IMG/VR virus record: IMGVR_UViG_3300042544_002482
Span: 29,593 to 93,592 of that record
DNA length: 64,000 bases
DNA from: a virus
Direction: 5' to 3' (one strand)
In this document: positions 1,723-20,307 of the stretch, in pieces
Layout: the number at the start of each line of letters is the position of its first letter
Numbering within the stretch: position 1 is the first letter of the stretch
Translations under genes and position numbers: made by a program
Notes under the pieces: generated by a model
The model's database searches: none
Told to the model about the DNA's origin: nothing
The model's input: only the letters and a program-made list of their open reading frames with translations

Positions 1723-2416
1723 ATATAAAATATAAGTCTTGTTTTAAATCATTGGTTTTATATAAAGGTACCCCCGAATTTAAAATCGATATACCTATTA
1801 TTAATCCCTCACCTCTACCTAATGGTTTGTTATTAAATTTAACATCATTATTGTTTATTTCTTTTTTTAAACAATTAAAAATTTTAAAAAAGTCATTCAA
1901 CTTTTCATCTCTACTAATAACGAAAAATCTTTCACCAATTAATTTAGCATCGCTAATTTTTAAATTGTTTTTTTTACAATGATTTTCAATATGATCAAAA
2001 TAATCATCTTTAATGATGTTCTTAAATTCTTGATATGTTAAAGGGGTTTCTAACCAATCTTCAGTATAATAAATCCCGGGGTTAAATTTTGCTTCACAGA
2101 AGTTATCAATATTTAATGTGATATCAGAATCAACATATAATATCGTCTCATATTTTTTTAAAGCAATTTCACAAATCAATAATTTATCCGTATAAGATTT
2201 GTCTACTTCAGTATACGGGACAATAATAACATTTAAGTCCTTAAACTCTTCTGGACTGTCAGTTAAAACAAGAATATCTACTGGGTAAGATTTATAGGTC
2301 TTAATATTTTTAATCGCCAAATCAATATAATAATTGTCTTCTTCTTTTTCTATTATACCGTTTTTAACTAATGGAGATTTAAATACAAATAAACAAATAG
2401 CTTTATTCATAATCAA
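1715..2416 (-). CDS. Putative glycosyltransferase, GT8-like fold
   Basis: A 233-aa protein. Residues 48-58 read ILVLTDSPEEF, followed by KSYTDKLL at 73-80 and YVDSDI at 94-99, the probable metal and nucleotide-sugar DxD site. Near the C-terminus GRGEGLIIGIS resembles GAGEGISIQIS in the first gene of the operon (19538-20272). That gene also shares VLTDKPEEF and SYSDKM, so the two are paralogues at opposite ends of the cluster. The reported start is MIMN; Met3 (2410) is an equally plausible start with a shorter overlap with the upstream gene. Function is inferred as sugar transfer. The GT8-like assignment rests on fold-level resemblance only. Confidence 0.8.
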   Translation of the reverse strand: MIMNKAICLFVFKSPLVKNGIIEKEEDNYYIDLAIKNIKTYKSYPVDILVLTDSPEEFKDLNVIIVPYTEVDKSYTDKLLICEIALKKYETILYVDSDITLNIDNFCEAKFNPGIYYTEDWLETPLTYQEFKNIIKDDYFDHIENHCKKNNLKISDAKLIGERFFVISRDEKLNDFFKIFNCLKKEINNNDVKFNNKPLGRGEGLIIGISILNSGVPLYKTNDLKQDLYFIYE

Positions 2417-2984
2417 TTTTATGGTTTTGTATTAATGTTAAGCTTTGCCCAACCAAAACATCTCTTCGCCCATCTGTAACTGGTTTTATAAAATGTGGGT
2501 GTGTCAATCCACCTGGAAAGATAATAATATCACCCAATTCTAAATTATAAGAAATGTCTTGTCTTGGAAAACAAAGTTCACCACCTTTAAAATTATTATT
2601 AAGTAAGCCAACAAATGTTAAACCACTAAAATCCCAATGAACATTCTTTTCTGAAAAAATTGTATTGTCTCTATAATAATGTAATAAAAACATATCCCTC
2701 CATTTTGTTTTAACAAAATCTTTTATATTTTTTATTGTTTCGTGAGACGCGTTTAATCCAATACCATTTTCAATATCATAAATTTTTAGATAGTCGTCTA
2801 AAAGCGGATATTCAATATTATTGAACCAAAAATCATTAATTTTATAAAATAAACTCATATCAATTTTATCTACATCAATCCTATCAATACCACCAATATT
2901 ATCACGAACTAATAATAATTCATCAATAATAGATTTTGGTATTATAGATTTAAAAACGAAAATATCTGAATCTATTTTTATCAT
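2403..2984 (-). CDS. 2OG-Fe(II) oxygenase (prolyl 4-hydroxylase-like)
   Basis: A 193-aa non-haem iron, 2-oxoglutarate-dependent dioxygenase. The double-stranded beta-helix signature is clear: HWD at 116-118 gives the first two iron ligands, GGELCFP at 134-140 is the typical strand, LGDIIIFPGG at 150-159 leads to the distal His (H162 or H164), and R173/R174 would bind 2-oxoglutarate. In known relatives such enzymes hydroxylate proline, lysine or other residues, or small molecules. Here the substrate is unknown. It directly follows another 2OG oxygenase with no spacer and lies downstream of eight radical SAM genes, so both chemistries probably act in one pathway. Confidence 0.9.
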   Translation of the reverse strand: MIKIDSDIFVFKSIIPKSIIDELLLVRDNIGGIDRIDVDKIDMSLFYKINDFWFNNIEYPLLDDYLKIYDIENGIGLNASHETIKNIKDFVKTKWRDMFLLHYYRDNTIFSEKNVHWDFSGLTFVGLLNNNFKGGELCFPRQDISYNLELGDIIIFPGGLTHPHFIKPVTDGRRDVLVGQSLTLIQNHKIDYE

Positions 2985-3695
2985 TTATATTTCAATATTA
3001 AAATTAATTACACATCTATGGGTTTTACCATAGAATGGTTTAACTGAATGTATAATATCAGCCGGCCACATCATTAACATACCTTTTTTAGGTCTTATAA
3101 AGTGAGACATTCCTCTGATATGAAACGTAAAAACACCACTGTATGGATGATCTGCGATTGGCTCACCATCTGATAAATAATATCCGCCAACAAAACTTAA
3201 AGGTGCTGATTCATAAATAGACCACCTACAATGGTTGTGTTGATTATGTCCTCTTCCAGAAGTTGGCTCATAATATTGTATCCAACTTTCTGTCACCTTT
3301 GGGTTGTTGTTATGTTTAAAATTTAATAAATTTAAAAAATCAATAAAACCATCTGTACATCGTTTCTTAATTAGTTTAACACATTCTTCTTCTCTATCTA
3401 AAAACTCATTTGTGGGCACAAGAAAACGACTACCTATTGGGTTGAATTCTGTCGGTTCAACCCATTTATCATGTTTACCATAATTTATTTCATATGTGCT
3501 TTGTCTATCCTGATCATATTGTTCAGGTAATTCTTGCCCCATTAATTTTTGTTCGGGTGTTAACTCATTAAACCCTAAATTATAAACCAAATCATGTAAA
3601 TCATGATCATCAAATTGTTTCATGTATACTGGTATGGGGGCTAAAAGATATAGATTGTCTTGACCGCTTGGCCAAAGTGGATTGTGAAAATACAT
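2985..3695 (-). CDS. 2OG-Fe(II) oxygenase family protein
   Basis: A 236-aa protein. The C-terminal half has a dioxygenase core: HNQHNH at 150-155 supplies the proximal ligands, GGYYLSDGEP at 170-179 is the characteristic strand, MLMMWPADIIHSVKPF runs to the distal His216, and R227 would bind the co-substrate. The pattern resembles the putative 2OG-Fe(II) oxygenases common in marine T4-like phages. The N-terminal half (about 1-130) is less recognisable and carries IPVYMKQF. The start overlaps the stop of the last radical SAM gene by one base and the stop abuts the ATG of the next oxygenase, giving a tandem pair. The two share little sequence outside the motifs, so they are probably not a recent duplication. 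Confidence 0.88.
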   Translation of the reverse strand: MYFHNPLWPSGQDNLYLLAPIPVYMKQFDDHDLHDLVYNLGFNELTPEQKLMGQELPEQYDQDRQSTYEINYGKHDKWVEPTEFNPIGSRFLVPTNEFLDREEECVKLIKKRCTDGFIDFLNLLNFKHNNNPKVTESWIQYYEPTSGRGHNQHNHCRWSIYESAPLSFVGGYYLSDGEPIADHPYSGVFTFHIRGMSHFIRPKKGMLMMWPADIIHSVKPFYGKTHRCVINFNIEI

Positions 3696-4888
3696 TAGCT
3701 TAATTTTAAAATATTATATGTTATTGGGAATATATCTTTAAATTTTTGATCCCTAGATTCATCTAGTAAATTATTTATTTTAATAAATGAATTCCAGTCC
3801 TGTTCTGTCGATTCTTTACTATTAAGGTATTGCGTAATATTTGTAAATTGTTCTTTAATTTCCGGGCTTTTTACCGGTAAACTATTATAAGATTCATTAA
3901 CATATTTTTCAATATCTATTTTTAAGTTTTCTGGAATATTGTTTATGCAATAGTATTTTGGTTGTGATAAAAAGTTACAATGTATTCGAATATTATTCTC
4001 AATTGCAAATTCAGCGACTTCGTTAAAATCTAGGACATTCATAATTGAAACTGTGTAACAAATATGAAACTTGAAATTTTTTAAATCTTTTGTTTTATCT
4101 AACCATAATAAAATATTATTTTTTACTTCATTCCAGTTTGCACCATATCTTAAATAATTAAATTTATCACCAACACCGTCTATACTAAATGAAATATCAG
4201 AAAGCTCAAAGTTTTTTAATATTTCAAAATATTCATCTTTAAAAATAGTACCATTAGTGTTAAAATGAACATACTTATTTTTAGCAATACCAGTATATAC
4301 ACATTTTTCTAAAATGGACCATTGTTTTTTCATTAACATTGGTTCACCACCATATAGATCAAGTATTTTTACTGATGATATATTTTTTTCAATTTCATCC
4401 CAAACCATACTGTCGTCAGCAAATGGTAAAGAACAAGATTTTGTAATCTGATTTAGTTTTTCATCTGAAATATCCGGGTTTAAAACTGATTTATGTTCTT
4501 TTTTCCAGTTTGAAGATGAATATACGTTACATATTCTACAAGTTAGATTACAAATATTCCCCATGTTTAATTCTAAAAAATGTATTTCACTTTCTAGTAG
4601 GGTTAAATGTGCAACTCTATTATTATCTCTAATTCTTTTACTTTCAACTCCCGAATCTTCTAAATTCCAACAACCATTACACTCTGGTGATTTTATTCCA
4701 TTTTTAAAATCTTCTTTAAGTTTTTTTAATGTAGGTGATTGTAGTGCGTCTTGGAAGGTTGTGTTTAGAACACTCATAACATTACCATCATCATCTTTAA
4801 GATATGTTTCACTAGCAATACAACATGGTGTAAATTTTCCATCCGTTGTTACCCTCAACCCATTATTTATGTTTGCACATTTTATCAT
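3695..4888 (-). CDS. Radical SAM protein with N-terminal twitch-like domain (array member 8)
   Basis: A 397-aa enzyme. An N-terminal twitch/SPASM-like cysteine set (C4, C22-C23, C70, C73; PCCIA and ECNGCW) probably binds an auxiliary iron-sulfur cluster. It precedes the radical SAM core with CNLTCRIC at 113-120, giving the CxxxCxxC that binds the SAM-cleaving [4Fe-4S] cluster. The SAM-binding GGEP is at 180-183. The layout matches the twitch domain-containing radical SAM family, in which the auxiliary domain comes first rather than last. Such enzymes generate a 5'-deoxyadenosyl radical, but the substrate here is unknown. It is the last of eight tandem radical SAM genes and overlaps the following oxygenase gene by one base. 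Confidence 0.9.
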   Translation of the reverse strand: MIKCANINNGLRVTTDGKFTPCCIASETYLKDDDGNVMSVLNTTFQDALQSPTLKKLKEDFKNGIKSPECNGCWNLEDSGVESKRIRDNNRVAHLTLLESEIHFLELNMGNICNLTCRICNVYSSSNWKKEHKSVLNPDISDEKLNQITKSCSLPFADDSMVWDEIEKNISSVKILDLYGGEPMLMKKQWSILEKCVYTGIAKNKYVHFNTNGTIFKDEYFEILKNFELSDISFSIDGVGDKFNYLRYGANWNEVKNNILLWLDKTKDLKNFKFHICYTVSIMNVLDFNEVAEFAIENNIRIHCNFLSQPKYYCINNIPENLKIDIEKYVNESYNSLPVKSPEIKEQFTNITQYLNSKESTEQDWNSFIKINNLLDESRDQKFKDIFPITYNILKLS

Positions 4889-4889
4889 C

Positions 4890-5912
4890 TTATAATGTTA
4901 AATTATGTTTTATTCTTTCTGTTTTTGGTAATCGATTATATATTTCAATCAACTTATAATACTCATCGTGATTAGAATCACCAATATCCGTTTTTTTAAA
5001 TTGTTCGGCGGTATATGTACCCCAATTAACCACTCTGTTATAAAACACGGACCAATTTTTACTTTTATTTGAGAAAATGTTTTTAACCATTTCATAAAAC
5101 AAAACCATTTCTTGATAGTTTTCATATTGGACAACGAATGATATTGTTACATCACGTAGGTAAGGTAATGTCGAAATAAAATTTAAATTATTTTGGATAT
5201 CTTCCCATTTACCTCCAATCCTTACTTTATTTTCATATGTTTCTTTTATTGCGGAATCAACCGATATTTCACAACTCTTTACGTACTTGTGAATGTTTTT
5301 CATTCTCGACCAGTTAGATTCATTCCACAGTGTTGCGTTAGTGTGTAAATGGATTTTTTTAAGGTTGGGGTATTTTGTAAAATCAAAATTCATCATCCAC
5401 TTTCTAAACGTTCTAGAAAAGAATGGATCACCTGACCCCGTACATTCGATATGTTCTAAACCACCGCTTAATTCCTGTTCAATGTGTTGTATTAATTGTT
5501 CGGTTCTTTCTCGTTCATCTCCCTCGTAATTAATAAATGTAGTTCTACATGATGGACATTTTAAATTACAACTTTGGTCAAAATTCATTTTGATTGTTGT
5601 TGGGAGTCCATTATCATATTTATTTCTATTTTTAAGGAATTCTTCTTTACTTACAAAACCATGTGTTTTACCTTCCTTAAGTCCTGTTAGTTTGGGGCAT
5701 CTTGATTCAATACAAAATTTATATGAGCCATCTAACATACTCTCCCTAACTTGTTCGGCAATATCTGACTTCCAATTAGTTTCAATAGACATTGGGTCAC
5801 CTAGATTTACGGGCAACCAATTCGGACAACACATAAAAGTCTTATGGTCAAATAACTCCAAAAAATTAAATGGTTGTGTGCAAACCCAATCCTTTTTATC
5901 TAATTGATTCAT
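4890..5912 (-). CDS. Radical SAM protein with N-terminal twitch-like domain, atypical GGEP (array member 7)
   Basis: At 340 aa this is the shortest member of the array. Auxiliary-cluster cysteines are C11, C28-C29 (MCCP), C67 and C72. The radical SAM motif CNLKCPSC lies at 115-122. Where its relatives have GGEP, this protein reads TGSGDPFFS, so the SAM amino-group binding loop departs from consensus although a Gly and a Pro are kept. The C-terminus is also shorter. It may still bind SAM, act on a different substrate, or be partly degenerate; sequence alone cannot decide. It overlaps the upstream radical SAM gene by 4 bases and is separated from the next gene by one. Confidence 0.88.
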   Translation of the reverse strand: MNQLDKKDWVCTQPFNFLELFDHKTFMCCPNWLPVNLGDPMSIETNWKSDIAEQVRESMLDGSYKFCIESRCPKLTGLKEGKTHGFVSKEEFLKNRNKYDNGLPTTIKMNFDQSCNLKCPSCRTTFINYEGDERERTEQLIQHIEQELSGGLEHIECTGSGDPFFSRTFRKWMMNFDFTKYPNLKKIHLHTNATLWNESNWSRMKNIHKYVKSCEISVDSAIKETYENKVRIGGKWEDIQNNLNFISTLPYLRDVTISFVVQYENYQEMVLFYEMVKNIFSNKSKNWSVFYNRVVNWGTYTAEQFKKTDIGDSNHDEYYKLIEIYNRLPKTERIKHNLTL

Positions 5913-7219
5913 ATTAATGTATCGTCGTTTTTTATTTCGTTTAAAAAGGATTTATCAACTATTGAGTTTTCAATTTCAGTAAACCAATCAACATATTGTG
6001 GATTAACATCTAAAAACTTTTCATTTCTTCTTTTATCTAATATGAGAGTTGACCTAAGTAAATGTCTTTCGGAATCTTTAATGTCACCTTCAAATGGTGT
6101 GTTCATGTGTTTTTCCCATGCATTAATGGCATTATCAACTATTCTCCTAACATGTGGATTTTCGATGGTCTTTGTATAATCATGTAATTTATTTATTAAA
6201 TCAACCTTAAGATTTGATGGTAATATTCTGATGTCGTACCAATGTGGTGTTGTTAGTAAATTATTTAATGATACCGTATTTGGATTAACTCCGACAGTTA
6301 TTGCCATATCAATTAATTCATTAATGTGGAATATGTTTAGTATACTGATTGTTGGTGAAATATGTACCTCCATTCCTTTATCAACACATGATTTAATGTT
6401 TTCATAAACACTATTCCATTTTGTCCCATTACGAATTACTTCCGCTAATTTACCAACAGCATCTAAAGATGCAAATAACATGATTCTACCATTTGGATCA
6501 TTCAAAAAGTGACTCCACAAACCATGTAAATCCCATTTTTTAAATTTAATGTGACTAAAATTTGTGTTGTATCTAATTCTCACATTTGTTCTACCCGCAG
6601 CAATTAGTTTTTCTAATATGATATAATGTTCATCCATGATTAATGGTTCACCACCCGCAAAATAAATTTCTTCAACATCGTTGATGAATCTGTCCACGTA
6701 TTTAAAAATATCTTCCTTACTATCTGAGTTATAATTCAGTAATCCGTTGTTATCCATTTTTGTTCCGTATAGTGCAGTCTCATCTTCGTACCATTTACTA
6801 CTTGAAAACGCTCCACACATTCTACATTTAAAATTACAAATGTTAGACCACCTAAAATCCCAATACTTTAATACAAATTTATCATTATGTCCAGTTTCAG
6901 GATTTGTTTCTTTAATTAAATCAGGAATCTCGTTATTAAAAAAATGGTTGTGGGTGTTTCGTGGACTTAACAGACCACTATCTTCAATTAGAAAACATCT
7001 TTCACAAAGATTTGGTCTTTCTCCTTCTAACATTTCTTTTCTGATTGTTTTCATGTCATCACCATTCCATATTTCTTCTAAGGTGTCTTTACTAGTGTTA
7101 CCTATTGATTTACCATAAGGAGCCATACAACAAGGGTAAATGTCACCATTAGGTTGTACGTTTAAATGTGCCCATGGTAGAACACAAAATGTTTTTGATA
7201 TATTGTTACCGTTACTCAT
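5909..7219 (-). CDS. Radical SAM protein with N-terminal twitch-like domain (array member 6)
   Basis: A 436-aa protein. The N-terminal auxiliary domain runs FCVLPWAHLNV, then PCCMAP and LCERCF, with cysteines 12, 30, 31, 72 and 75. The SAM-cleaving motif CNFKCRMC is at 128-135 and is followed by FSSSKWYED, a stretch also seen in other members. A canonical AGGEP follows in EIYFAGGEPLIM. This is the most typical twitch-type radical SAM of the set, and its N-terminus (LPW..LNVQPNGDIYPCC) matches the family pattern well. The ATG directly abuts the upstream stop. The substrate is unknown; context suggests modification of a glycan, lipid or protein made by the same operon. Confidence 0.92.
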   Translation of the reverse strand: MSNGNNISKTFCVLPWAHLNVQPNGDIYPCCMAPYGKSIGNTSKDTLEEIWNGDDMKTIRKEMLEGERPNLCERCFLIEDSGLLSPRNTHNHFFNNEIPDLIKETNPETGHNDKFVLKYWDFRWSNICNFKCRMCGAFSSSKWYEDETALYGTKMDNNGLLNYNSDSKEDIFKYVDRFINDVEEIYFAGGEPLIMDEHYIILEKLIAAGRTNVRIRYNTNFSHIKFKKWDLHGLWSHFLNDPNGRIMLFASLDAVGKLAEVIRNGTKWNSVYENIKSCVDKGMEVHISPTISILNIFHINELIDMAITVGVNPNTVSLNNLLTTPHWYDIRILPSNLKVDLINKLHDYTKTIENPHVRRIVDNAINAWEKHMNTPFEGDIKDSERHLLRSTLILDKRRNEKFLDVNPQYVDWFTEIENSIVDKSFLNEIKNDDTLI

Positions 7220-8455
7220 CTATAATAATTTTTTTTGTAAAACTTCTTTTATTTTTGGGAATGTGTTCAAAAAACTTTCACTCCTTATTTCATCAACCTT
7301 ATTTGTTACATTAACAAATAAATCTTTTTCTCCATTTTCAGGTGTATTGTAATAAACACCATACAAGTCATTAAAGAACTCATCACTTACCAAACCTTTT
7401 ATTTCATCAATTTTTTTTCTCCTCACATCAATAGGAAAAACATTTGGACTTTGGTATGATGGTGAAAAAACATGATTAGGTGTTAGTCGATAAATTTTAC
7501 CTGAACCATCTAACTTATATAAACCTTCTTTTATAAGGAATTGAGCCAACTCCTCAATATATAAAAAATTAAACGCGTTGATAGTTTGTGTGATACTAAT
7601 ATGGAAATTATATTCATTAATGTACCTTTTAAGGTTATTAATTGTTAAATCCCAATTACTTAAACTCCTAATAAATGTATTTCTATCTTTGACATCGTCA
7701 ATACTAATAGATAATGCCACATTTTTAAATGACTTTAATTTTTCTAATGTTGGTTTTATTTTGTCAAAATCATAATTAGCGTTGGTGATATATGAAATTG
7801 TTGTATTTTTAGCGTGACCCTCCTCAACCATTCTTTTAATTAAGTAATCGTGTTTTGAGACAAGAAACGGTTCACCTCCACTTACTTGTAATAAATTAAG
7901 GTTAGGTGTGAACTTAATTAAGTCATCATAAAATTCAACTTTGTCAGGCCATTCATAGTCTGAATCCTCACTATTTTTTATAGATTGATAATCAGATGGT
8001 AAAGGTACAACGTCTTTTAATTTATAATAATCGGTTATCCAAGATGTACTCGATTCGGCATTACATGAACGACATTTAAAATTACAAAAATTACCAAGTC
8101 TTAATTCTACGTTTGTTAAATTAGGTACTATACTACCATCCTCATTAATTGAGGTGTTAATAATTTCTCTATTTTCTTTAATTCTTTTAGATACGTTACC
8201 ATTCTTTTCAACATTATAACAAGTTAAACAGGCGTTAGGTACTTCACCATTAACCATTTGTTTTCTAACTTTTTTAAAACTATCAGAGTTAATTACTTTT
8301 TCAACACCTTGATTTATGTTAACAACCTTTCCATCGGTTTTGGCAAAGGTTTCTTCCGCTTCCCAATTAGCTTCACAACAAACAGAACAATGTCCATGTG
8401 GATGAACACTGATATGGTTCCACAATAAATTACATATGAATTTTTTATTTTCCAT
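7220..8455 (-). CDS. Radical SAM protein with N-terminal twitch-like domain (array member 5)
   Basis: A 411-aa protein. Auxiliary-cluster cysteines C8, C26-C27 (VCCEAN), C76 and C79 (ACLTCYNVEKNG) come first. The radical SAM motif CNFKCRSC is at 124-131 and the canonical SGGEPFL follows. The linker after the auxiliary domain (SKRIKENRE) resembles that of array member 8 (SKRIRDNNR), so these two are probably closer to each other than to the CHHP subgroup. The ATG lies three bases after the previous stop, and the stop abuts the next ATG. Reaction and substrate are unknown. Confidence 0.92.
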   Translation of the reverse strand: MENKKFICNLLWNHISVHPHGHCSVCCEANWEAEETFAKTDGKVVNINQGVEKVINSDSFKKVRKQMVNGEVPNACLTCYNVEKNGNVSKRIKENREIINTSINEDGSIVPNLTNVELRLGNFCNFKCRSCNAESSTSWITDYYKLKDVVPLPSDYQSIKNSEDSDYEWPDKVEFYDDLIKFTPNLNLLQVSGGEPFLVSKHDYLIKRMVEEGHAKNTTISYITNANYDFDKIKPTLEKLKSFKNVALSISIDDVKDRNTFIRSLSNWDLTINNLKRYINEYNFHISITQTINAFNFLYIEELAQFLIKEGLYKLDGSGKIYRLTPNHVFSPSYQSPNVFPIDVRRKKIDEIKGLVSDEFFNDLYGVYYNTPENGEKDLFVNVTNKVDEIRSESFLNTFPKIKEVLQKKLL

Positions 8456-8458
8456 TTT

Positions 8459-9799
8459 CTATAATGTTTTAAACCAATTTATAAATTCAATTGGCATATA
8501 TTCTTCTATTGGTTTATTTCTTCTTATTGAATATTGATTAACGAATTTTTTAAGGTCGTTTATTTTATTTTCAGTACTATCACTATCCTCATAGGATATG
8601 TCAACTTGTCTCAAGTATAAAACCAATCTGTCAAAATGATTTACTTCCCATTCTTCCATCCATGGTTTATTACTAATAACCGATGATTCAATATTATCTG
8701 CCAATAAGTTTTTTATGTTTTGGTCAATCATATTAATACTTTGAAACGAAGGGAACCTTAAAATATTTACACTCATTGAGAATGTATGGATATTATTTAA
8801 TTCTTTTCTCCATTTAACAATTTCATCTAAAAACAAGTCTACAGTCCAAATACTTAAGACACTAATTGTCATCATAATATTAAGTCTTCTAACCTTTTTG
8901 GATTTTTCGACTTTGAACATATTGTCTTTCCATAAATCCCACTTAAATCCATCTCTAACGAATTCCTGGTGTTTACCGAAACATTCGGCTGAGGTATAGA
9001 TGTCCAACGACTTAAACTTATCAGAAGAATTTAGTAACCTATAAAGTCTCTCATCGTCCATAATGAGATTACTATTAACCGCAAAGTCAAACTTATCATT
9101 ATTACAAACATCCAACAGTTTCCAAAATGAAGGACTTCTTGATGGTTCACCACCAGATACTCTTAGTTCCATTAACTCTCCCCTTATTTCTTCGAACCAA
9201 TTGAAAAAGTTATTTACGTAGATGTTGTCTTCATTTTTATTACCGAACGGCATGGCAATTGAACCGTCACTTTTATATGTTAGTCCACCATTAGTTTTCA
9301 TTCCCTCATATTCACCATTGTTCAAAATATCTTTGGACCAGGTTGAACTGAACTCTGAATTACAGTAGCTACAAGCCAAATTACAAAGATTATCGAAACA
9401 GATTTCAATCGTTTTAGGTATCACATTCGCGTCCCACGGCATTGTTTTAATTTTTTCAATGTCTTCCTTGGTATACCTAGATGTTTGGTACATTCTATCA
9501 CTAAAAATATTTGGGTTGTCTTTTGCCGCATCCTCCACTCTCCAACAATATGAACATTCTTTTGGTCTAACACCTTCTAACATCTCCTTTCTTCTTTCTT
9601 TCTTGAAGTTGGTATTATGTAGGGCGGATGGATTACTATTTAACTCATCTAATGGAATTGGATGTGCTAGTGGGTGGTGACAAGATGCGGTTTTACCGTT
9701 ACCTAACCATATAGATACGTTATACCATTTCGCAGCACAAAAAGAGGACGAAAAATCGTCCATCAATTTTTTAATTTCGGTATAGGGTATATTAGACAT
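8459..9799 (-). CDS. Radical SAM protein, CHHP subgroup (array member 4)
   Basis: A 446-aa protein, one of three with a modified N-terminal domain. The usual CC pair is replaced by Cys-His-His (SCHHP at 39-43), preceded by FCAAKW at 20-25 and followed by SALHNTNFKKE near 58-68 and ECSYCW at 81-86. The radical SAM motif CNLACSYC is at 139-146 and VSGGEPSRSP follows. The auxiliary cluster may therefore have one His ligand or fewer ligands than usual. This copy is more divergent than the two 460-aa copies upstream and has no LamG gene after it. It overlaps the LamG gene 9799-10440 by one base. Confidence 0.92.
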   Translation of the reverse strand: MSNIPYTEIKKLMDDFSSSFCAAKWYNVSIWLGNGKTASCHHPLAHPIPLDELNSNPSALHNTNFKKERRKEMLEGVRPKECSYCWRVEDAAKDNPNIFSDRMYQTSRYTKEDIEKIKTMPWDANVIPKTIEICFDNLCNLACSYCNSEFSSTWSKDILNNGEYEGMKTNGGLTYKSDGSIAMPFGNKNEDNIYVNNFFNWFEEIRGELMELRVSGGEPSRSPSFWKLLDVCNNDKFDFAVNSNLIMDDERLYRLLNSSDKFKSLDIYTSAECFGKHQEFVRDGFKWDLWKDNMFKVEKSKKVRRLNIMMTISVLSIWTVDLFLDEIVKWRKELNNIHTFSMSVNILRFPSFQSINMIDQNIKNLLADNIESSVISNKPWMEEWEVNHFDRLVLYLRQVDISYEDSDSTENKINDLKKFVNQYSIRRNKPIEEYMPIEFINWFKTL

Positions 9800-10440
9800 T
9801 AAATGATTTTTTGTTTTGGTGCGACATTATTAAACATATCGATTGATTTATTAACATATTCTGGGTCTTCGATTAGAATTCCGTGATTTCCATTCCCACT
9901 ATTGTCGAATGTTTTAAACTTAGAATTTTCTTCGAAATTCATATTAATATACATATTTTTATCCGTATAATCAACTAACGTGTTATATATAATTATGTTA
10001 TTAATGTCACCATTAAACCATTTATCGTTTTCACCGTTAAATGGATATAGGGACCCAATTAAGAGTCTTTTTTCTGAATAATCAATAATATCACCTTTAA
10101 CTTTAGAATCCATTAAAACGTCATTAAAATACAAACCAATCGATTCTGATACCGTTACCTTTATATTCATTCTTTGTTTAATGTCATCAATTATAAATCT
10201 AACATCATTATATCTATTTCCGGTTGTGTACCAAACAAATTTCACTATGTTAGGTAGTTCTAAAAATAAACCCATTGGGTGACCATCTTTAGAAATGATT
10301 GTTGCTTCGTTATCTACAAAATCAAATAACCTAAAATCAGCTATAATTGTAAAGTTATTTTCAATTGAAGAATAATCTTTAACGTTAGTGTTGTTCTTAG
10401 TTTTATTTGGTATGTAGTATGATGTTTTATTGAATATCAT
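9799..10440 (-). CDS. Small LamG/concanavalin A-like lectin protein
   Basis: A 213-aa protein without a signal peptide. It shows the jelly-roll pattern of LamG-like domains: FTIIADFRL near 30-38, internal strands with LYFNDVLMD, then LLIGSLYPF and WFNGDINNIIIYN, and finally FDNSGNGNHGIL, a sequence typical of LamG modules. LamG domains bind sugars or proteins, but no catalytic residues are visible. The gene is sandwiched between two radical SAM genes, overlapping the upstream one by 14 bases and the downstream one by one base, so it is probably translated with them. It may present substrate to the radical SAM partner, or be a lectin part of the modification complex. That role is inferred. Confidence 0.8.
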   Translation of the reverse strand: MIFNKTSYYIPNKTKNNTNVKDYSSIENNFTIIADFRLFDFVDNEATIISKDGHPMGLFLELPNIVKFVWYTTGNRYNDVRFIIDDIKQRMNIKVTVSESIGLYFNDVLMDSKVKGDIIDYSEKRLLIGSLYPFNGENDKWFNGDINNIIIYNTLVDYTDKNMYINMNFEENSKFKTFDNSGNGNHGILIEDPEYVNKSIDMFNNVAPKQKII

Positions 10441-11809
10441 GGTAAAATTTTTCTAATTCAGGGAATGTTTTAACAAAATTGGTTCCTCTTCTTCTATCGT
10501 GTTCGTCAACAAAGATTTTAAAATCTTTTTTGTTTGTTTTTAACCAATCGTCCTCTTCTTTTACTAGCATCCAATCGTGAATTCTATTTAACTTATTAAT
10601 TTCTATATCCGTAAAACCGTACCCATCCATTCCAACTCTTATCTGTTCATAAAAATCCATTAGTTGTGCTTGTTCTTTAACTTCTTTTACCCAATCATCA
10701 CCTAAAATCTTTACGGTTTGATATTCTGGGTGTCTCAAATATGATGAGTCTAAAATGATAGATGATCCGTAATATCTATATGGGTTATGGTATTCTTCTT
10801 TTAGTTTATAAACATTTTTAATTAAGTCCTTATATCTTGGTACCGATAGTGCGTTATATGTGGACATTATAATGATTGTCAATGTTGGTATTTCTTTTAA
10901 TAGAATATTGATTCGATCCCATACTAAATTAAAAGTCATCCCGTTTCTGATATATTCTGCTTGATTACCCCACGTATCGACACTAGTGAATACGATTACC
11001 TCGTTAACTCTATCTTCATCTATTATTCTTTTTATTTTGTTTAAAAATTCATTGAATAACTTATCAGGTGCACCTAAATTGGTGTTTATTGAAAAATTCA
11101 AATTTTTGTTTGGGTTGGGGTTATCGATAATGTAATCCAACACTTTAAACGTATCTTTTGAAAGTAGCGGTTCTCCTCCAGTAATTCTAAACGTGTGTAA
11201 ATCTCGATATAAATCCGGCCACCATTTCCAAAATGATTCAACATAAGGGTTAAATTCATTATGTGGGATTGGCATCTTATTCTCACTTTTTAACCATTCA
11301 AGATTACCGAACTCATTCGATGTTGGGTACTTCCCGTGTTGTAATATCTCCTGCATCCACTGAGATGAGTAAGATGGACCACAATAAGAACATTTGTAGT
11401 TACAATGATTACTAAATGCCACCTCAACATATTTTGGGTTATAATTGTTATTCCAATTAAGGTTTTTTATTTCATCTATAAATGGTTTAGACCATGGTTC
11501 AGACGATTTGTATGTCCTATCTGAAAAGGCGTTTGATGAATCCTCAATGTTCCAACAATATGAACATTCTTTGGGTTTACCACCTTCTAACATTTCTTTC
11601 CTCTGTTCTTTTTTAAATTGTGTATTGTGTAAAGCCGAGGGATTATTTTTTAATTCTTCTAAGGGTATGAAATGTGGTGACGGGTGGTGACACGAATGTG
11701 TTTGACCCATTTGTAGGTGTAAAGTTACTTGTGTCCATTTTGCTAAACAAAATCCACACCCCACAGAATTTAATTCTTTTCTTGTCTTCTCAAAAATTTC
11801 GTTTAACAT
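10427..11809 (-). CDS. Radical SAM protein, CHHP subgroup (array member 3)
   Basis: A 460-aa protein, very like the 460-aa product of 12378-13760 along its whole length: GCGFCLAKWTQVT, SCHHP, FKKEQRKEMLEG, ECSYCWNIED and FRITGGEPLL are all shared or nearly so. The radical SAM motif CNYKCSYC is at 136-143. N-terminal cysteines are C18, C21, C40, C82 and C85, with His-His after C40. The C-terminus DEHDRRRGTNFVKTFPEL is nearly the same in the sister copy. The two copies are each followed by an overlapping LamG gene, so a two-gene cassette has been duplicated. Substrate unknown. Confidence 0.93.
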   Translation of the reverse strand: MLNEIFEKTRKELNSVGCGFCLAKWTQVTLHLQMGQTHSCHHPSPHFIPLEELKNNPSALHNTQFKKEQRKEMLEGGKPKECSYCWNIEDSSNAFSDRTYKSSEPWSKPFIDEIKNLNWNNNYNPKYVEVAFSNHCNYKCSYCGPSYSSQWMQEILQHGKYPTSNEFGNLEWLKSENKMPIPHNEFNPYVESFWKWWPDLYRDLHTFRITGGEPLLSKDTFKVLDYIIDNPNPNKNLNFSINTNLGAPDKLFNEFLNKIKRIIDEDRVNEVIVFTSVDTWGNQAEYIRNGMTFNLVWDRINILLKEIPTLTIIIMSTYNALSVPRYKDLIKNVYKLKEEYHNPYRYYGSSIILDSSYLRHPEYQTVKILGDDWVKEVKEQAQLMDFYEQIRVGMDGYGFTDIEINKLNRIHDWMLVKEEDDWLKTNKKDFKIFVDEHDRRRGTNFVKTFPELEKFYHDIQ

Positions 11810-11812
11810 TTT

Positions 11813-12394
11813 TTATATTTTATGTATGAAGTTACAGTTATTTGTTAAGTCATAACTTTTATTATGAATGAATTTTTCAAATGTGTGTTCAGATATGAGT
11901 GCCCCATCTTTTTTAATTGATAGGTATGAAATGGTACCATCAAAATAATTTAAATTGTAATCATTCTTTGGGAAATTACCAGAACCAAAGATTATGTGAG
12001 GTTTATTATCCTCAATTAAATTAGTTTTTAAAGTAATATCAAATATCAATTCATTGTTGATGGTTACTTTAATATCGTTACCATCTTTTGTTATTTCTAA
12101 TCTATATTTTTTATTTGGTTCCCATCCATAATTCTTAGTTAGGTATTTTGTTTCATCTCCCTCTTCATTGAAAATTACTAACAATCCACTTATTTCAATA
12201 TCAATACCGAAGTACGTTGGTAACTTGGCAAATAACGTCATTTTATTTGTTACCACATCTGATAATTGAAATTCAATTAAGAAATTAAAGTTTCCCCTAT
12301 AGTCAAAGATTTTATTACTTGGGTAATCAATAAAATTATCAGCAAGAAAATCTGGCCACATTACCCATATGTTTTCTTTATTTATTTTTAACAT
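11813..12394 (-). CDS. Small LamG/concanavalin A-like lectin protein
   Basis: A 193-aa protein with no signal peptide. The central strands are LamG-like: FNFLIEFQLSD near 36-46, KKYRLEITKDGNDIKVTINNELIFDITL in the middle, PHIIFGSGNFP, then YFDGTISYLSIKKDGALISEHTF near the end. Sequence identity with the other small LamG protein (9799-10440) is low, but position and length correspond. It overlaps the upstream radical SAM gene by 17 bases and ends three bases before the next radical SAM gene. Sugar or glycoconjugate binding is the most likely role. It could instead be a scaffold for the radical SAM partner. Confidence 0.75.
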   Translation of the reverse strand: MLKINKENIWVMWPDFLADNFIDYPSNKIFDYRGNFNFLIEFQLSDVVTNKMTLFAKLPTYFGIDIEISGLLVIFNEEGDETKYLTKNYGWEPNKKYRLEITKDGNDIKVTINNELIFDITLKTNLIEDNKPHIIFGSGNFPKNDYNLNYFDGTISYLSIKKDGALISEHTFEKFIHNKSYDLTNNCNFIHKI

Positions 12395-13760
12395 CGTAAT
12401 AAAAGTTTTTTAGTTCTGGAAAAGTTAGAATGAAATTTGTACCTCTTCTTTCATCATATTCATCAACAAACGATACAAAGTCTTTTCTATTTTGTTCCAC
12501 ATCAAATGTTTCATCTTCAGCAATTGAGTAATCGTAGATTCTTTTTATTTTTTGAACTTCAACATCGGAAAACCCTACGTTATCGTGATTAAATTCTGGT
12601 GTTGCATAATAGAATGCTTTTTTGGCTGATTCTAAAATAAGTTCTTTGTGTTCTCTTTCTAATATTTTTACCGATAGATGTTTTGGCCATCTTAAATACG
12701 ATGTGTCTAATTGTATTGCCGATATCCAATATCTAACATTGTTTGCATGTTTTTTCTTCATATCGAATATTTGTTCAATAACATCCCCATATGTGAAAAC
12801 TGATAAGGCGTTAAATGTTGCCATTACGTTAATTGTTACTTTAGGTAATTTTGTTAGTATCTTATCTATGTTATTCCAAAATTTTTCATAATCTAAACCA
12901 AACCTAACATATTCCGCTTGTTTATCTTTAGCCTCTACCGATGTGAAAATGATTAATTCTTTTATCTTATTATTATTACACAAATCCTCGGCAATCTCAA
13001 TAAACTTATCTATTAAATTATCGGGTACTCCTAAATTACTATTAATGGCTAAAGATAGGTTGGGGTTTTGTTCCCAATTTGTTTGTATGTACTCTAAAAC
13101 TTTAAATGTATCTTTCGCCAATAGAGGTTCACCACCTGTGATTCTAAACGTATGTAAGTCTTTATAAAGATTTGGCCACCATTCCCAAAAGGCTTCCAAA
13201 TATGGATTATGTTCGGAATGTTTATATGGCATTTCTTTTTTTAACTCCAATTCCTCTATGTTGTTGTAGTTGGTTGAAGTTTTATATCCGCCATACTTTT
13301 CAATTTCTTCCACCCATTTTGAAGAGTACTGTGGTCCACAATATGCACATTTAAAGTTACATGTGTTAGAAAAAGAAACCTCAACATATCTTGGATTAAA
13401 ATTTTCTCTCCAGTTTAATTCTTTTATTTCGTTGAAGTGTGGCATAGACCATTGTTCAGACGATTTAAAAACACGATCCGAAAAATTACTACTATTATCC
13501 TCGATATTCCAACAGTACCCACATTCTTTGGGTTTATTACCCTCCAACATTTCTTTTCTCTGTCTTTTTTTATACAGAGTATTGTGTAGTGCAGATGGGT
13601 CCCTTTTTATCTCAGATATCGGTATCTTATGTTGAGCGGGGTGGTGACATGAGTGTGTTAAACCAATACCTAAATGCATAGTTACTTGTGTCCATTTTGC
13701 TAAACAAAATCCACAACCAACCCCATCTAATAAATCCTTCGTATCTTTAAAATTATTCAT
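12378..13760 (-). CDS. Radical SAM protein, CHHP subgroup (array member 2)
   Basis: A 460-aa protein, close paralogue of 10427-11809. N-terminal motifs are GCGFCLAKW at 15-23, SCHHP at 37-41, SALHNTLYKK near 56-65 and ECGYCWNIED at 79-88. The radical SAM motif CNFKCAYC is at 134-141 and TGGEPLLA follows. Its C-terminal DEYDERRGTNFILTFPEL mirrors the sister copy. Residues differ enough through the middle to exclude a very recent duplication. The stop lies 17 bases inside the LamG gene 11813-12394, and its ATG abuts the stop of array member 1. Function is unknown beyond radical SAM chemistry. Confidence 0.93.
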   Translation of the reverse strand: MNNFKDTKDLLDGVGCGFCLAKWTQVTMHLGIGLTHSCHHPAQHKIPISEIKRDPSALHNTLYKKRQRKEMLEGNKPKECGYCWNIEDNSSNFSDRVFKSSEQWSMPHFNEIKELNWRENFNPRYVEVSFSNTCNFKCAYCGPQYSSKWVEEIEKYGGYKTSTNYNNIEELELKKEMPYKHSEHNPYLEAFWEWWPNLYKDLHTFRITGGEPLLAKDTFKVLEYIQTNWEQNPNLSLAINSNLGVPDNLIDKFIEIAEDLCNNNKIKELIIFTSVEAKDKQAEYVRFGLDYEKFWNNIDKILTKLPKVTINVMATFNALSVFTYGDVIEQIFDMKKKHANNVRYWISAIQLDTSYLRWPKHLSVKILEREHKELILESAKKAFYYATPEFNHDNVGFSDVEVQKIKRIYDYSIAEDETFDVEQNRKDFVSFVDEYDERRGTNFILTFPELKNFYYDVKNK

Positions 13761-14954
13761 TTAAAACATTATTTCAATCCAAGGACAAATTTCTTTATAG
13801 TCTGTGTTTCTCATACTATCTAATTTTTCCAAGTATTCTTTTAGGTCGTCTTTATTTTGGTTACCTCTTATTAATGAGGAGTCTATTTTTAAATGATTAA
13901 TAAAATCATTCATAATTGTCACAATTTTACTATAGTATTCTTTTTTACTTAGATTTTCATTAATGTAATCAATGACTTTGTTTTTAAATTCAATCGGCGC
14001 AGCACCTACCGCAAACCAATAAGGTGTCGTTGCCCAGTGAATATGAATCAAATCTTTTTTTGTATAATTGTTTTCTAAAACATAATCAATAAAATCAAAG
14101 GTATGAAATATATTCATCATTGTTATGGTATATTCAATCTCAGCATTTACATTTGGATTTGTTAAGTTAAAATCTGAGATTTTTTTCATGTTATCAAAAA
14201 ACTTATCAGATATGAATCCAGTTCTTTGAAACTCACCAACCTTTCCATAACCATCACAAGAACAACCCACAATAACATTCTTAAATTTTTTTAATGATTC
14301 AAGAATGTCTATATTTTTATATTTTAAATTGGATAAGTTTGTGTTTATATAAACATTTATATTTTTTGATTGGTCTTCACTAAACCTATCAATTAATTTG
14401 AACACATCTTCATTAATGAAAGGTTCTCCACCTGCAAAGTAAAGGTGTTCGATATGGTTTAAATCTTCGTCTGAGAATTTATTAACTGGGTCGTCACCTA
14501 TTTTATATGATTTACTAAAAAGTTTACTCACACCTTCACCATATATTTCAACTAAATCATCATACCAAGAAGATGAAAGTGTTGGTCCACACATTCTACA
14601 TTTGAAATTACATAAATTAGAAAACCTAACATCTAAGTATTGTAATTTATTTACCGAATAATCCTCATTGAATAGTGTTGGGTCTTCGAATTTATCTTTC
14701 CAGTTATTATTCCACACATCTTTCAGTGTGTTACCCTTTTTAAAACAAATATCACATGGTTTAGGTGTTATACCATTATCCATGTCTTCTCTTAACTTTT
14801 TGAATTGTTTACTGTTCAATATGCCCATTACATTATCATGGTCGGACCATTTTAATTCCTCTTCAAAATTATCAGCAATACAACAGGGTCTTACCAGTCC
14901 ATCTGGGTTAACATATAATGAGGTATATGCTAATATACATTGGGTGTCTTTCAT
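13761..14954 (-). CDS. Radical SAM protein with N-terminal twitch-like domain (array member 1)
   Basis: A 397-aa protein and the first radical SAM gene transcribed. Auxiliary cysteines are C6, C24-C25 (RPCCIADNF), C67 and C70 (PCDICFKKG), the canonical CC arrangement. The radical SAM motif CNFKCRMC is at 115-122, followed by SSSWYDDL and FAGGEPFI. The FAGGEP and CRMC motifs are shared with array member 6. The stop abuts the ATG of the next radical SAM gene, and its own start overlaps the upstream galactosyltransferase-like gene by 4 bases (ATGA type). The enzyme therefore sits exactly at the junction between the sugar-transfer and radical-chemistry halves of the operon. Confidence 0.92.
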   Translation of the reverse strand: MKDTQCILAYTSLYVNPDGLVRPCCIADNFEEELKWSDHDNVMGILNSKQFKKLREDMDNGITPKPCDICFKKGNTLKDVWNNNWKDKFEDPTLFNEDYSVNKLQYLDVRFSNLCNFKCRMCGPTLSSSWYDDLVEIYGEGVSKLFSKSYKIGDDPVNKFSDEDLNHIEHLYFAGGEPFINEDVFKLIDRFSEDQSKNINVYINTNLSNLKYKNIDILESLKKFKNVIVGCSCDGYGKVGEFQRTGFISDKFFDNMKKISDFNLTNPNVNAEIEYTITMMNIFHTFDFIDYVLENNYTKKDLIHIHWATTPYWFAVGAAPIEFKNKVIDYINENLSKKEYYSKIVTIMNDFINHLKIDSSLIRGNQNKDDLKEYLEKLDSMRNTDYKEICPWIEIMF

Positions 14955-16348
14955 TTCATTTTACAATTTATAATTTTAGTGTTAGGGTATGTTGAGTTGT
15001 CAACATTATCCACGTCTAACACATTTAATATTTGTGATAAACCATCATTTTTATAATCAATCTTTCTTTGTTGCATTTCAGTCACAAATCGTTTTTCATT
15101 TCTTGCTGTCGTTTCACCTTTAGCCCATCTTCCATGTATAAACCCCTCATCTACGTGTGGTAAACAATAAAAAGAACCTTCACGTCTGAATGGGATTACG
15201 TTTTCGATAATTTCAATATCCTCATTTGTGATTTGAATGTTTTGTTTAATAATATTTTCATTATTTAAATCAAGACTTAAAACTACGTTATCAACATTTG
15301 TTGGTATGTCGTTAATGTCTTTAAAAAATCTATCATAAATCTTAAAATCGGATATCTTACCTTTATATCTTGTGTTTACTTGTGGACAAAATCCCAATAT
15401 AAATGGTTTTATTGCATCATGTGTTTTTAAATCGTTTTTTACTAGGAACGGTATATTTTGTTTTATTCCGTTAATGTGACAAATTAACTCGTCATTAATA
15501 TAAAGATATACATTTTTTTCTTCACTATTATAACTAAATGTAACTTGTGTCCACATACCCTCAAATCTCTTAGCCCAATTATAGTGGTTTCGATTGTCTC
15601 TATCGAAAACCTGAGCGGTAACGGCTCTAGAGTTGTTGAAGGATAAACCCCAGGTCCAACTACCGTCCTTTCTTAATAAAGGGTATTCAATAAAACGTTT
15701 GTTTTCGTCACCAACTAACCAAATCGGAACCTTTTCGTCCTGTTGTTCTGCGTTAAATGTTAATGTTATTGTATGATCATTATGTAAACAAGAACTGATT
15801 TCACGATTTGTTGGTATGAAAATTGCCGATGAGTCACCATCAAAATTAGCAACAATTTTGTTTTTTTCAGTTTTAACTGTTCTTCCAGTTGTCATTTCTT
15901 CAAAATAACATCTCCAGAATAAGTCGTCATCTTCTTGACCCCAATCCCAATACTCATTAGAATAACCATTTATGGTTTTCGCTTGTTCTTTAGTGAATAA
16001 TACAACACCACCGAAGTATTGGTCATAACCTAAACCGTATTGATACTTGGATAACTTAGTTGCTATGTGTATCGGATTATTTTCTGGATATGAATAGTCA
16101 CATTCTTCATGTGGTAACATATCAACATCGTGCCAAGCGATGTAATCACAACCATCATTAAACGCATATTCAGCTGCAATATTTTTCATTGCACCTCTAT
16201 TGAATAATTTATCATCAACCTGATGTCCAACATAAAATTCATGTTCAATACCTTGTTGAGTTAAGTGTTTACTTAGGTGTGGAACCAATCTTTCTAAATG
16301 TTCCTTTCTATTTCTGTATGGTATACATATACCTAATTTATGTCTCAT
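14951..16348 (-). CDS. Beta-4-galactosyltransferase-like enzyme with nested LamG domain
   Basis: A 465-aa protein. The N-terminal 150 residues have beta-4-galactosyltransferase (GT7) landmarks: CIPYRNRKEHL at 8-18, FNRGAMKNIA at 49-58, HDVDMLP at 73-79 with the DVD metal site at 74-76, DQYFGGVVLFT at 109-119 and WGQEDDDLFWR at 136-146. From about 165 to 385 a LamG-like lectin domain interrupts the fold (VYLYINDELICHING; KGKISDFKIYDRFF). After it the end of the GT7 fold resumes with IPFRREGSF, a KRF segment and NDGLSQIL. Sugar transfer is the clear inference; donor and acceptor are not readable. The nested lectin is unusual and is repeated in the next gene upstream. Confidence 0.9.
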   Translation of the reverse strand: MRHKLGICIPYRNRKEHLERLVPHLSKHLTQQGIEHEFYVGHQVDDKLFNRGAMKNIAAEYAFNDGCDYIAWHDVDMLPHEECDYSYPENNPIHIATKLSKYQYGLGYDQYFGGVVLFTKEQAKTINGYSNEYWDWGQEDDDLFWRCYFEEMTTGRTVKTEKNKIVANFDGDSSAIFIPTNREISSCLHNDHTITLTFNAEQQDEKVPIWLVGDENKRFIEYPLLRKDGSWTWGLSFNNSRAVTAQVFDRDNRNHYNWAKRFEGMWTQVTFSYNSEEKNVYLYINDELICHINGIKQNIPFLVKNDLKTHDAIKPFILGFCPQVNTRYKGKISDFKIYDRFFKDINDIPTNVDNVVLSLDLNNENIIKQNIQITNEDIEIIENVIPFRREGSFYCLPHVDEGFIHGRWAKGETTARNEKRFVTEMQQRKIDYKNDGLSQILNVLDVDNVDNSTYPNTKIINCKMK

Positions 16349-17769: not shown

Positions 17770-17968
17770 TTATAGTTGGGTCTTTTGGTTTGGTTGTATT
17801 GTGCCATTCCGATAGATAATATTGAATTCTATCACTCCATTCCTGTTTATCAACCTCTTCAAACCAAATGGTTAAAGCATCTAACGAATTAGCAATTTTT
17901 TCTAATGCCTTTACTTTTCTTGTTTCTAAGATTTGTTGTTCTTGTTCTTTTTCTACTTTTGTACTCAT
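17762..17968 (-). CDS. Small helical protein of unknown function
   Basis: A 68-aa, charged, probably alpha-helical protein. The N-terminal half is a likely coiled coil (EQEQQILETRKVKALEKIANSL in two overlapping parts) and the C-terminal half is rich in aromatics (IWFEEVD, EWSDRIQYYLSEWH). No cysteine, leader motif or membrane segment is present. It overlaps both neighbours, by 8 bases downstream and 4 upstream, so it is translated with the two glycosyltransferase genes around it. It is the only very small gene in the operon. It could be a partner subunit; it does not look like a ribosomal peptide precursor. Confidence 0.8.
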   Translation of the reverse strand: MSTKVEKEQEQQILETRKVKALEKIANSLDALTIWFEEVDKQEWSDRIQYYLSEWHNTTKPKDPTING

Positions 17969-20272: not shown

Positions 20273-20280
20273 AGGTAAAA

Positions 20281-20288
20281 TATAAATA
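20281..20288 (-). promoter_or_regulatory. Candidate phage promoter motif TATTTATA heading the 20-kb operon
   Basis: The coding strand reads TATTTATA, ending 8 bases before the ATG of 19538-20272. The same octamer recurs upstream of many other genes in the window. This is the only copy I found serving genes 1-20272. Its function as a promoter is inferred from recurrence and position. Confidence 0.5.
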
Positions 20289-20307
20289 ATTTATATTAAA
20301 ATGTAAA

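What the first reader, a model, noticed from the sequence alone, without database searches (positions are those of the whole stretch)
3695..14954. Eight radical SAM genes in one unbroken array inside a phage operon
Seen directly: eight consecutive products carry CxxxCxxC radical SAM motifs, with an auxiliary cysteine set placed N-terminally (twitch type). Knowledge: the twitch domain-containing radical SAM family is known, but an eight-member tandem array is far beyond the one or two such genes usual in phages. Inference: the enzymes act in sequence or on different positions of one product, together with two 2OG oxygenases, a methyltransferase and several glycosyltransferases. The island starts 35 bases from the tail-fibre genes, so virion glycans or fibre proteins are possible substrates; a secreted or host-directed product is equally open. 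No RiPP precursor peptide was found.
Basis: partly seen in the sequence, partly recalled or inferred. Interest (0 to 1): 0.88.

Follow-up and report, generated by a model that had tools for sequence, protein, structure and literature searches.

The report
Phage radical-SAM and glycosyltransferase gene cassette
An uncultured virus of bacteria carries eight related iron-sulfur "radical" enzymes beside sugar-attaching enzymes; such arrays turn out to be common in uncultured aquatic viruses and probably build or trim an unusual sugar coat, but nobody has tested what they make.

Summary
The eight genes are real. All match NF033640 (N-terminal-twitch radical SAM), seven above the curated cut-off, on one strand at the stated coordinates. 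The array is not unbroken: two small LamG (ConA-like) genes interrupt it, so it is eight radical SAM genes among ten. It is not exceptional in number either. 53 of 80 sampled IMG/VR relatives hold arrays of four or more, some records hold 12-17 copies, and multi-radical-SAM phages have been published since 2010.

What is informative is the design. The eight genes belong to seven or eight old orthologous groups shared between phages in conserved order, so this is a mix-and-match toolkit and not a recent duplication. One clade (genes 10427-11809 and 12378-13760) is followed by a LamG gene in 14 of 14 representatives, against 0 of 69 outside it. That LamG domain is homologous to one carried by the neighbouring beta-1,4-galactosyltransferase-like pair. 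The rest of the island is glycosyltransferases, a methyltransferase, two 2OG oxygenases, and upstream a UDP-galactopyranose mutase and an epimerase. Flippase, priming transferase and RiPP-recognition (PqqD) genes were not found.

Best reading: radical SAM enzymes tailoring a phage-made glycan. Whether it decorates virion fibres or the host envelope is unresolved. Confidence about 0.5.

The parts
13761..14954 (-). N_Twi radical SAM no. 1 in transcription order (orthologue group shared with L006, L007, L008)
   Evidence: NF033640 291 bits; tree
12378..13760 (-). N_Twi radical SAM no. 2, clade always followed by a LamG gene
   Evidence: NF033640 330 bits; LamG pairing
11813..12394 (-). LamG/ConA-like partner gene (193 aa), start overlaps the end of radical SAM no. 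2
   Evidence: hhalign to the LamG-bearing part of the GT7 profile, probability 95; overlap 17 nt
10427..11809 (-). N_Twi radical SAM no. 3, clade always followed by a LamG gene; AlphaFold model pLDDT 93.7
   Evidence: NF033640 340 bits; model; pairing
9799..10440 (-). LamG/ConA-like partner gene (213 aa), start overlaps the end of radical SAM no. 3
   Evidence: hhalign to the LamG part of GT7, probability 99.7, E 7.7e-26
8459..9799 (-). N_Twi radical SAM no. 4
   Evidence: NF033640 268 bits
7220..8455 (-). N_Twi radical SAM no. 5
   Evidence: NF033640 303 bits
5909..7219 (-). N_Twi radical SAM no. 6
   Evidence: NF033640 381 bits
4890..5912 (-). divergent N_Twi radical SAM no. 7 (GSGDP instead of GGEP), conserved orthologue group
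   Evidence: NF033640 58.6 bits, below cut-off; PF04055 30.1 bits; tree; motifs
3695..4888 (-). N_Twi radical SAM no. 8
   Evidence: NF033640 295 bits
2985..3695 (-). 2OG-Fe(II) oxygenase
   Evidence: PF13759 27.1 bits, cut-off 27
2403..2984 (-). probable 2OG-Fe(II) oxygenase (weak)
   Evidence: PF13640 19.3 bits, below cut-off; HxD...H visible in the sequence
1715..2416 (-). paralogue of the 19538-20272 GT-A-type protein
   Evidence: same cluster, 25% identity
781..1722 (-). unassigned protein with a DLD motif, glycosyltransferase-like by eye
   Evidence: no Pfam or NCBIfam match
14951..16348 (-). GT7 (beta-1,4-galactosyltransferase-like) with LamG domain
   Evidence: PF02709/PF13733/PF13385
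16345..17769 (-). GT7 with LamG domain
   Evidence: PF13733/PF02709/PF13385; phmmer 3e-29 to beta-1,4-galactosyltransferase 1nf5
17762..17968 (-). conserved 68-aa helical protein, always just upstream of the GT7 pair
   Evidence: no family match
17965..18816 (-). GT2-type glycosyltransferase
   Evidence: PF13704 23.4 bits, below cut-off
18813..19559 (-). methyltransferase
   Evidence: PF13578 52.5 bits
19538..20272 (-). GT-A-fold glycosyltransferase (LgtC/UGGT-like), head of the cassette
   Evidence: AlphaFold pLDDT 78.8; Foldseek best UGGT 7e-7, LgtC 2e-5; DAD motif
20273..20307 (-). 35-nt gap before the cassette: TTTACA-17-TATATT-6-ATG; also holds TATTTATA
   Evidence: -35 and -10 boxes conserved in L009
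20308..22398 (-). C1q-like short fibre-type genes adjoining the cassette
   Evidence: PF00386 below cut-off; phrog_15750 / phrog_23059

Best explanation
This is a phage-encoded glycan-tailoring cassette. Soluble glycosyltransferases (GT7 pair, GT2-type, GT-A-type) build a small glycan in the host cytoplasm. The radical SAM enzymes then alter sugar carbons, each on its own position or intermediate (by dehydration, dehydrogenation, epimerisation or a similar radical step), with the methyltransferase and 2OG oxygenases adding further decoration. The ConA-like LamG module, fused to both GT7s and supplied separately to two of the radical SAM enzymes, is the likely shared docking element that keeps enzymes on one acceptor. 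The gene set varies between phages by gain and loss of orthologous modules, so each phage displays its own glycan. Where it is displayed is unresolved: host envelope (LPS core or lipid A-linked glycan, changing superinfection or recognition) slightly over virion fibres. Shown: gene content, pairing, orthology, synteny. Inferred: substrate class, order of action, docking role, site of display.
For: Sugar enzymes dominate the fixed neighbourhood: GT7+LamG twice, GT2-type, methyltransferase, a GT-A-fold protein at the cassette head, and UDP-galactopyranose mutase, NAD epimerase and further glycosyltransferases upstream in the same record. A second architecture in 60-90 loci has other neighbours at the same places: glycosyltransferase-like genes upstream of the radical SAM array, SGNH-like and carbamoyltransferase genes downstream. 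A third, in the cultured Vibrio phage K566, interleaves N_Twi radical SAM genes with GT8 and GT4-like genes next to LpxC. The LamG partner is clade-specific (14/14 against 0/69) and homologous to the GT7 LamG domain. Upstream fibre genes differ between phages while the cassette is kept, which argues against a fibre-specific peptide substrate. The nearest solved folds include the sugar-acting AprD4 and BlsE, though at TM about 0.3. PqqD/RRE was not found in 12 phage records.
Against: No characterised NF033640 member was found, so the substrate class rests on context. The structural matches are too distant (TM about 0.3) to name a substrate, and viperin and the peptide-acting anSME score almost as well. 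Bacterial relatives sit mostly as single genes in mixed, not sugar-rich, neighbourhoods. Many neighbours in the second architecture have no Pfam or NCBIfam match and are called glycosyltransferases by eye only. The location evidence conflicts: fibre adjacency and a TATTTATA element shared with structural genes against a sigma-70-like promoter at the head of the other architecture.
Confidence: 0.5

Rival explanations
1. The radical SAM enzymes modify amino-acid residues of the tail-fibre proteins directly (epimerisation, cross-links, hydroxyl or formyl handles), and the glycosyltransferases then use those sites. Each enzyme serves a different residue or repeat.
For: Most SPASM/twitch radical SAM enzymes with known function act on peptides (general knowledge). 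The cassette adjoins fibre-type genes here and in most relatives. The window element TATTTATA before the cassette is shared with structural genes (8 of 22 gaps against 0.6 expected).
Against: Cassettes keep their order while the adjoining fibre genes are unrelated between phages. No RRE/PqqD domain was found. Related cassettes carry their own sigma-70-like promoter, unlike the fibre genes.
Confidence: 0.2
2. The whole set is early host takeover or metabolic support (for example lipid A or LPS precursor remodelling for superinfection exclusion, or auxiliary metabolism), with fibre adjacency only a property of a hypervariable region.
For: Sigma-70-like promoters at the head of the second architecture: 19/48 upstreams with at least 10/12 matches, 1.3 expected. 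LpxC beside the K566 array. The published reading of pelagimyophage glycosyltransferases as O-chain modifiers (PMC7029224) and of CP220 radical SAM genes as metabolic boosters (PMC2853527).
Against: Flippase and priming glycosyltransferase were not found in ten phage records, though LPS-core work would not need them. No such promoter excess is shown for the window's own architecture beyond one 10/12 site (P about 0.07).
Confidence: 0.17
3. A RiPP-like or secreted small product made by radical SAM maturases; the 68-aa protein would be the precursor.
For: Radical SAM/SPASM maturases commonly act on RiPPs (general knowledge); a conserved small ORF is present.
Against: The 68-aa protein tracks the GT7 pair and is conserved along its length without a variable core. 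No PqqD/RRE. The operon leaves no gaps for other small genes.
Confidence: 0.05
4. Recent tandem duplication with little functional meaning (gene-dosage or decaying copies).
For: Eight members of one family side by side.
Against: The copies are only 16-28% identical to one of them, fall in separate groups shared across phages in the same order, and keep their motifs.
Confidence: 0.03

Closest known systems
Campylobacter phages CP220 and CPt10 radical SAM modules (PMC2853527)
   Same: Myophages with 11-12 radical SAM genes, five of them in an exchangeable cluster; function unknown
   Different: Their enzymes are not N_Twi: best NF033640 score 35 bits against a cut-off of 170. The paper passages read name a glycine amidinotransferase, not glycosyltransferases, as the cluster's other shared gene
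Pelagimyophage host-recognition cluster with radical SAM cassettes (PMC7029224)
   Same: T4-like aquatic phages, hypervariable region with fibres, glycosyltransferases (GT8) and radical SAM cassettes
   Different: No array anatomy, LamG pairing or subfamily given in the passages read; that these are N_Twi was not tested here
TARA_ERS488813_N000010 (PMC5332604)
   Same: T4-like marine genome with 12 radical SAM genes
   Different: Discussed as Fe-S metabolism genes; no cassette described in the passages read
Vibrio phages K566/K567
   Same: Cultured phages with N_Twi radical SAM genes interleaved with GT8 and GT4-like genes
   Different: About 23% identical, shorter array, next to LpxC and an annotated PagP; no LamG partner seen
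BtrN, AprD4 and BlsE radical SAM enzymes
   Same: Sugar- or aminocyclitol-acting radical SAM fold; BtrN has a single-cluster twitch (general knowledge)
   Different: Only distant matches; the twitch here is N-terminal
GT7 beta-1,4-galactosyltransferases
   Same: Catalytic domain homologous, E 3e-29
   Different: Phage proteins add a LamG domain after the catalytic domain and occur as tandem pairs

Membership tests
NF033640 twitch domain-containing radical SAM | Score above curated cut-off 170 bits | tested here: met
   Seven of eight (268-381 bits); 4890-5912 has 58.6 bits and fails
NF033640 twitch domain-containing radical SAM | N-terminal auxiliary-cluster cysteines before CxxxCxxC | tested here: met
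   All eight; Pfam SPASM N-terminal in four
NF033640 twitch domain-containing radical SAM | Binds two Fe-S clusters and cleaves SAM | not testable with these tools
   Needs purified protein
RiPP radical SAM/SPASM maturation system | Precursor peptide gene and RRE/PqqD recognition element | tested here: not met
   PqqD in 0 of 12 phage records; no gaps in the operon for a precursor; 68-aa gene tracks GT7
O-antigen/capsule biosynthesis cluster (Wzx/Wzy type) | Wzx flippase and priming sugar transferase | tested here: not met
   PF01943 and PF02397 in 0 of 10 phage records, including 219-347 kb ones; host genes could supply them
Virion glycosylation system | Glycan on purified virion proteins | not testable with these tools
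   No proteomics available
Pelagimyophage host-recognition cluster | Hypervariable island between VrlC and gp14 with fibres | tested here: inconclusive
   Fibre-type genes adjoin; VrlC and gp14 not located in this fragment
CP220-type radical SAM module | Radical SAM genes of the same subfamily | tested here: not met
   CP220/CPt10 genes score at most 35 bits to NF033640

The most novel reading that the evidence does not exclude
A widespread phage toolkit of N-terminal-twitch radical SAM enzymes that carve a phage-specific glycan by successive radical chemistry on sugars, using a shared ConA-like module to hold glycosyltransferases and radical SAM enzymes on one acceptor. This would be a modular radical glycan-editing system not known to me in any organism.
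Probability: 0.25. Interest if true: 0.85.

Novelty: new variant of a known kind. Interest (0 to 1): 0.52.

Why it matters
Multi-radical-SAM phages have been noted since 2010 without a function. The conserved pairing, order and two recurring cassette architectures seen here turn that into a testable question: which substrate, on virion or host. Cultured Vibrio phages K566/K567, with the same subfamily beside GT8 and LpxC genes, give a bench system. If the enzymes edit sugars, phages hold a large unexplored set of oxygen-sensitive carbohydrate enzymes, relevant to host recognition and superinfection.

Tried and rejected
Unprecedented-array claim: rejected. Recent tandem duplication: rejected by the tree. 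RiPP system: no PqqD, no precursor. Wzx/Wzy polysaccharide cluster: not found. The idea that the cassette is simply a late structural operon: weakened, since the TATTTATA element in the window gap is not conserved in L009 whereas TTTACA/TATATT is, and the second architecture has sigma-70-like promoters; not settled for the window itself. The Pfam neighbour census of bacterial relatives showed no functional theme. Cultured-phage searches with the downstream v8 protein, a GT7-LamG protein, the glycosyltransferase-like v0 protein, a LamG partner and a fibre gave nothing. A PDB profile search with the LamG alignment gave nothing. An alignment of all eight enzymes was too diverse for the genome scan.

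Full report
Observation. The window is bases 29,593-93,592 of a 93,592-base IMG/VR virus record. Eight minus-strand genes between 3695 and 14954 match NF033640, the N-terminal-twitch radical SAM family. Seven are far above its curated cut-off, and 4890-5912 is a divergent member below it. All eight keep CxxxCxxC and an N-terminal cysteine set. The array is not unbroken: two genes inside it, 9799-10440 and 11813-12394, are LamG/ConA-like. Genes overlap or abut throughout 781-20272, so the set reads as one operon. A ninth radical SAM gene (L003:12980-13981) lies elsewhere in the record.

How unusual is it? Of those 80 loci, 53 hold arrays of at least four N_Twi genes within about 21 kb. Whole-record counts reach 12, 15, 16 and 17. 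A near relative, L005, has the same eight genes in the same order. Cultured phages are nearly devoid of the family: Vibrio phages K566/K567 and weak KVP40-type relatives. The literature already has 11-12 radical SAM genes in Campylobacter phages CP220/CPt10 with an exchangeable five-gene module (PMC2853527), 12 in a T4-like marine genome (PMC5332604) and radical SAM cassettes in pelagimyophage host-recognition clusters (PMC7029224). The CP220 genes are a different subfamily.

Anatomy. A tree of 85 representatives puts the eight window genes into separate, mostly well-supported groups that recur in other phages in conserved order. With bacterial relatives added, the window genes still nest among phage sequences. 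The clade of 10427-11809 and 12378-13760 is followed immediately by a LamG gene in 14 of 14 representatives and never (0 of 69) outside it. Profile comparison links that LamG protein to the LamG domain of the two GT7 genes next door (probability 99.7, E 7.7e-26). The GT7 catalytic part matches beta-1,4-galactosyltransferase (E 3e-29). The cassette's first gene is a GT-A-fold protein by model and fold search. Further members are a GT2-type protein, a methyltransferase and two 2OG oxygenases, one weak. The upstream part of the record adds UDP-galactopyranose mutase, an epimerase, further glycosyltransferases and an APS kinase.

Related architectures. Sixty to ninety loci show a second layout: fibre genes, a 107-aa protein, two glycosyltransferase-like genes, another at the array's edge, the radical SAM array, then a 355-aa gene (next to the array in 35 of 37 cases), SGNH-like and carbamoyltransferase genes. 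Only the carbamoyltransferase has a strong Pfam match; the other assignments are by motif and by eye. In K566, N_Twi genes alternate with GT8 and GT4-like genes and lie near LpxC (PF03331, E 1.3e-40) and a gene annotated PagP, which has no Pfam match.

Expression clues. In the window, TATTTATA occurs on the coding strand in 8 of 22 intergenic gaps (0.6 expected), mostly before structural genes, once before the cassette's first gene, and nowhere inside the cassette genes. The same cassette gap also reads TTTACA-17-TATATT-6-ATG, and these boxes, not TATTTATA, are kept in L009; as a single site it is weak (P about 0.07). In the second architecture the first cassette gene has a sigma-70-like promoter in 19 of 48 distinct upstreams (1.3 expected, maximum 4 in shuffles), whereas the fibre genes have an ATAAATA-type motif (14/43 and 15/27 against about 3) and no such excess. 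So at least those cassettes look separately, perhaps early, transcribed.

Interpretation. The constant partners of the array are sugar enzymes, not any one fibre protein, precursor peptide or metabolic gene. That, and the LamG module shared by glycosyltransferases and radical SAM enzymes, make glycan tailoring the best reading (0.5). The site of display is left open. Absence of flippase and priming transferase genes fits virion glycans or LPS-core work using host export, and argues against a complete phage-encoded O-antigen or capsule pathway. Direct fibre-residue modification (0.2) and early host remodelling or metabolism (0.17) remain; a RiPP is unlikely. The fold search with a confident model (pLDDT 93.7) finds only distant solved relatives, sugar-acting AprD4 and BlsE first, then viperin and anSME, at TM about 0.3, so it does not decide the substrate.

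Limits. Neighbour assignments in uncultured records are partly by motif only. The viral sample was chosen by similarity, so frequencies are not population estimates. Gene calls in related loci used a simple longest-ORF rule. Promoter statements are sequence statistics, not transcripts. The record is a fragment; its head protease is 64% identical to that of a 634-kb uncultured phage, so the phage may be much larger.

Noticed in passing
L018 (Vibrio phage K566) 6705-17984: N_Twi radical SAM genes alternate with GT8 and GT4-like genes beside LpxC and an annotated PagP: a cultured phage for testing, and a hint at lipid A/LPS work.
   Followed up: partly
G028 (record of L214), 117,247 bases: 17 NF033640 matches in one virus record, the most seen; G020 (L175) has 16 and G015 (L160) 15.
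   Followed up: no
L110 6031-18027: Seven N_Twi radical SAM genes in an array, and an eighth on the other strand, on a Bacteriovoracaceae contig near an Obg GTPase gene; not obviously a prophage.
   Followed up: partly
upstream of the 107-aa gene in L036, L045, L051 and relatives: Sigma-70-like promoters whose -10 box often ends only 5-6 nt before the ATG, suggesting leaderless transcripts.
   Followed up: partly
L056:16379-17512 and 36 relatives: A protein family of about 355 aa, lying directly after the array in 35 of 37 loci, without NCBIfam match or cultured-phage relative.
   Followed up: no
window 17762-17968: Conserved 68-aa helical protein always just upstream of the GT7 pair, sometimes duplicated (L026); no family match.
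   Followed up: partly
window 58671-59345: Head maturation protease 64% identical to that of a 634,780-bp uncultured phage (LR745206) and 45% to Prevotella Lak phages, so the source may be a huge phage.
   Followed up: no
L003:12980-13981 (record bases 12980-13981): Ninth radical SAM gene of the record, outside the window, of another type.
   Followed up: no
window intergenic gaps 20273-58670: TATTTATA element on the coding strand before most structural genes, a candidate late promoter of this phage.
   Followed up: partly
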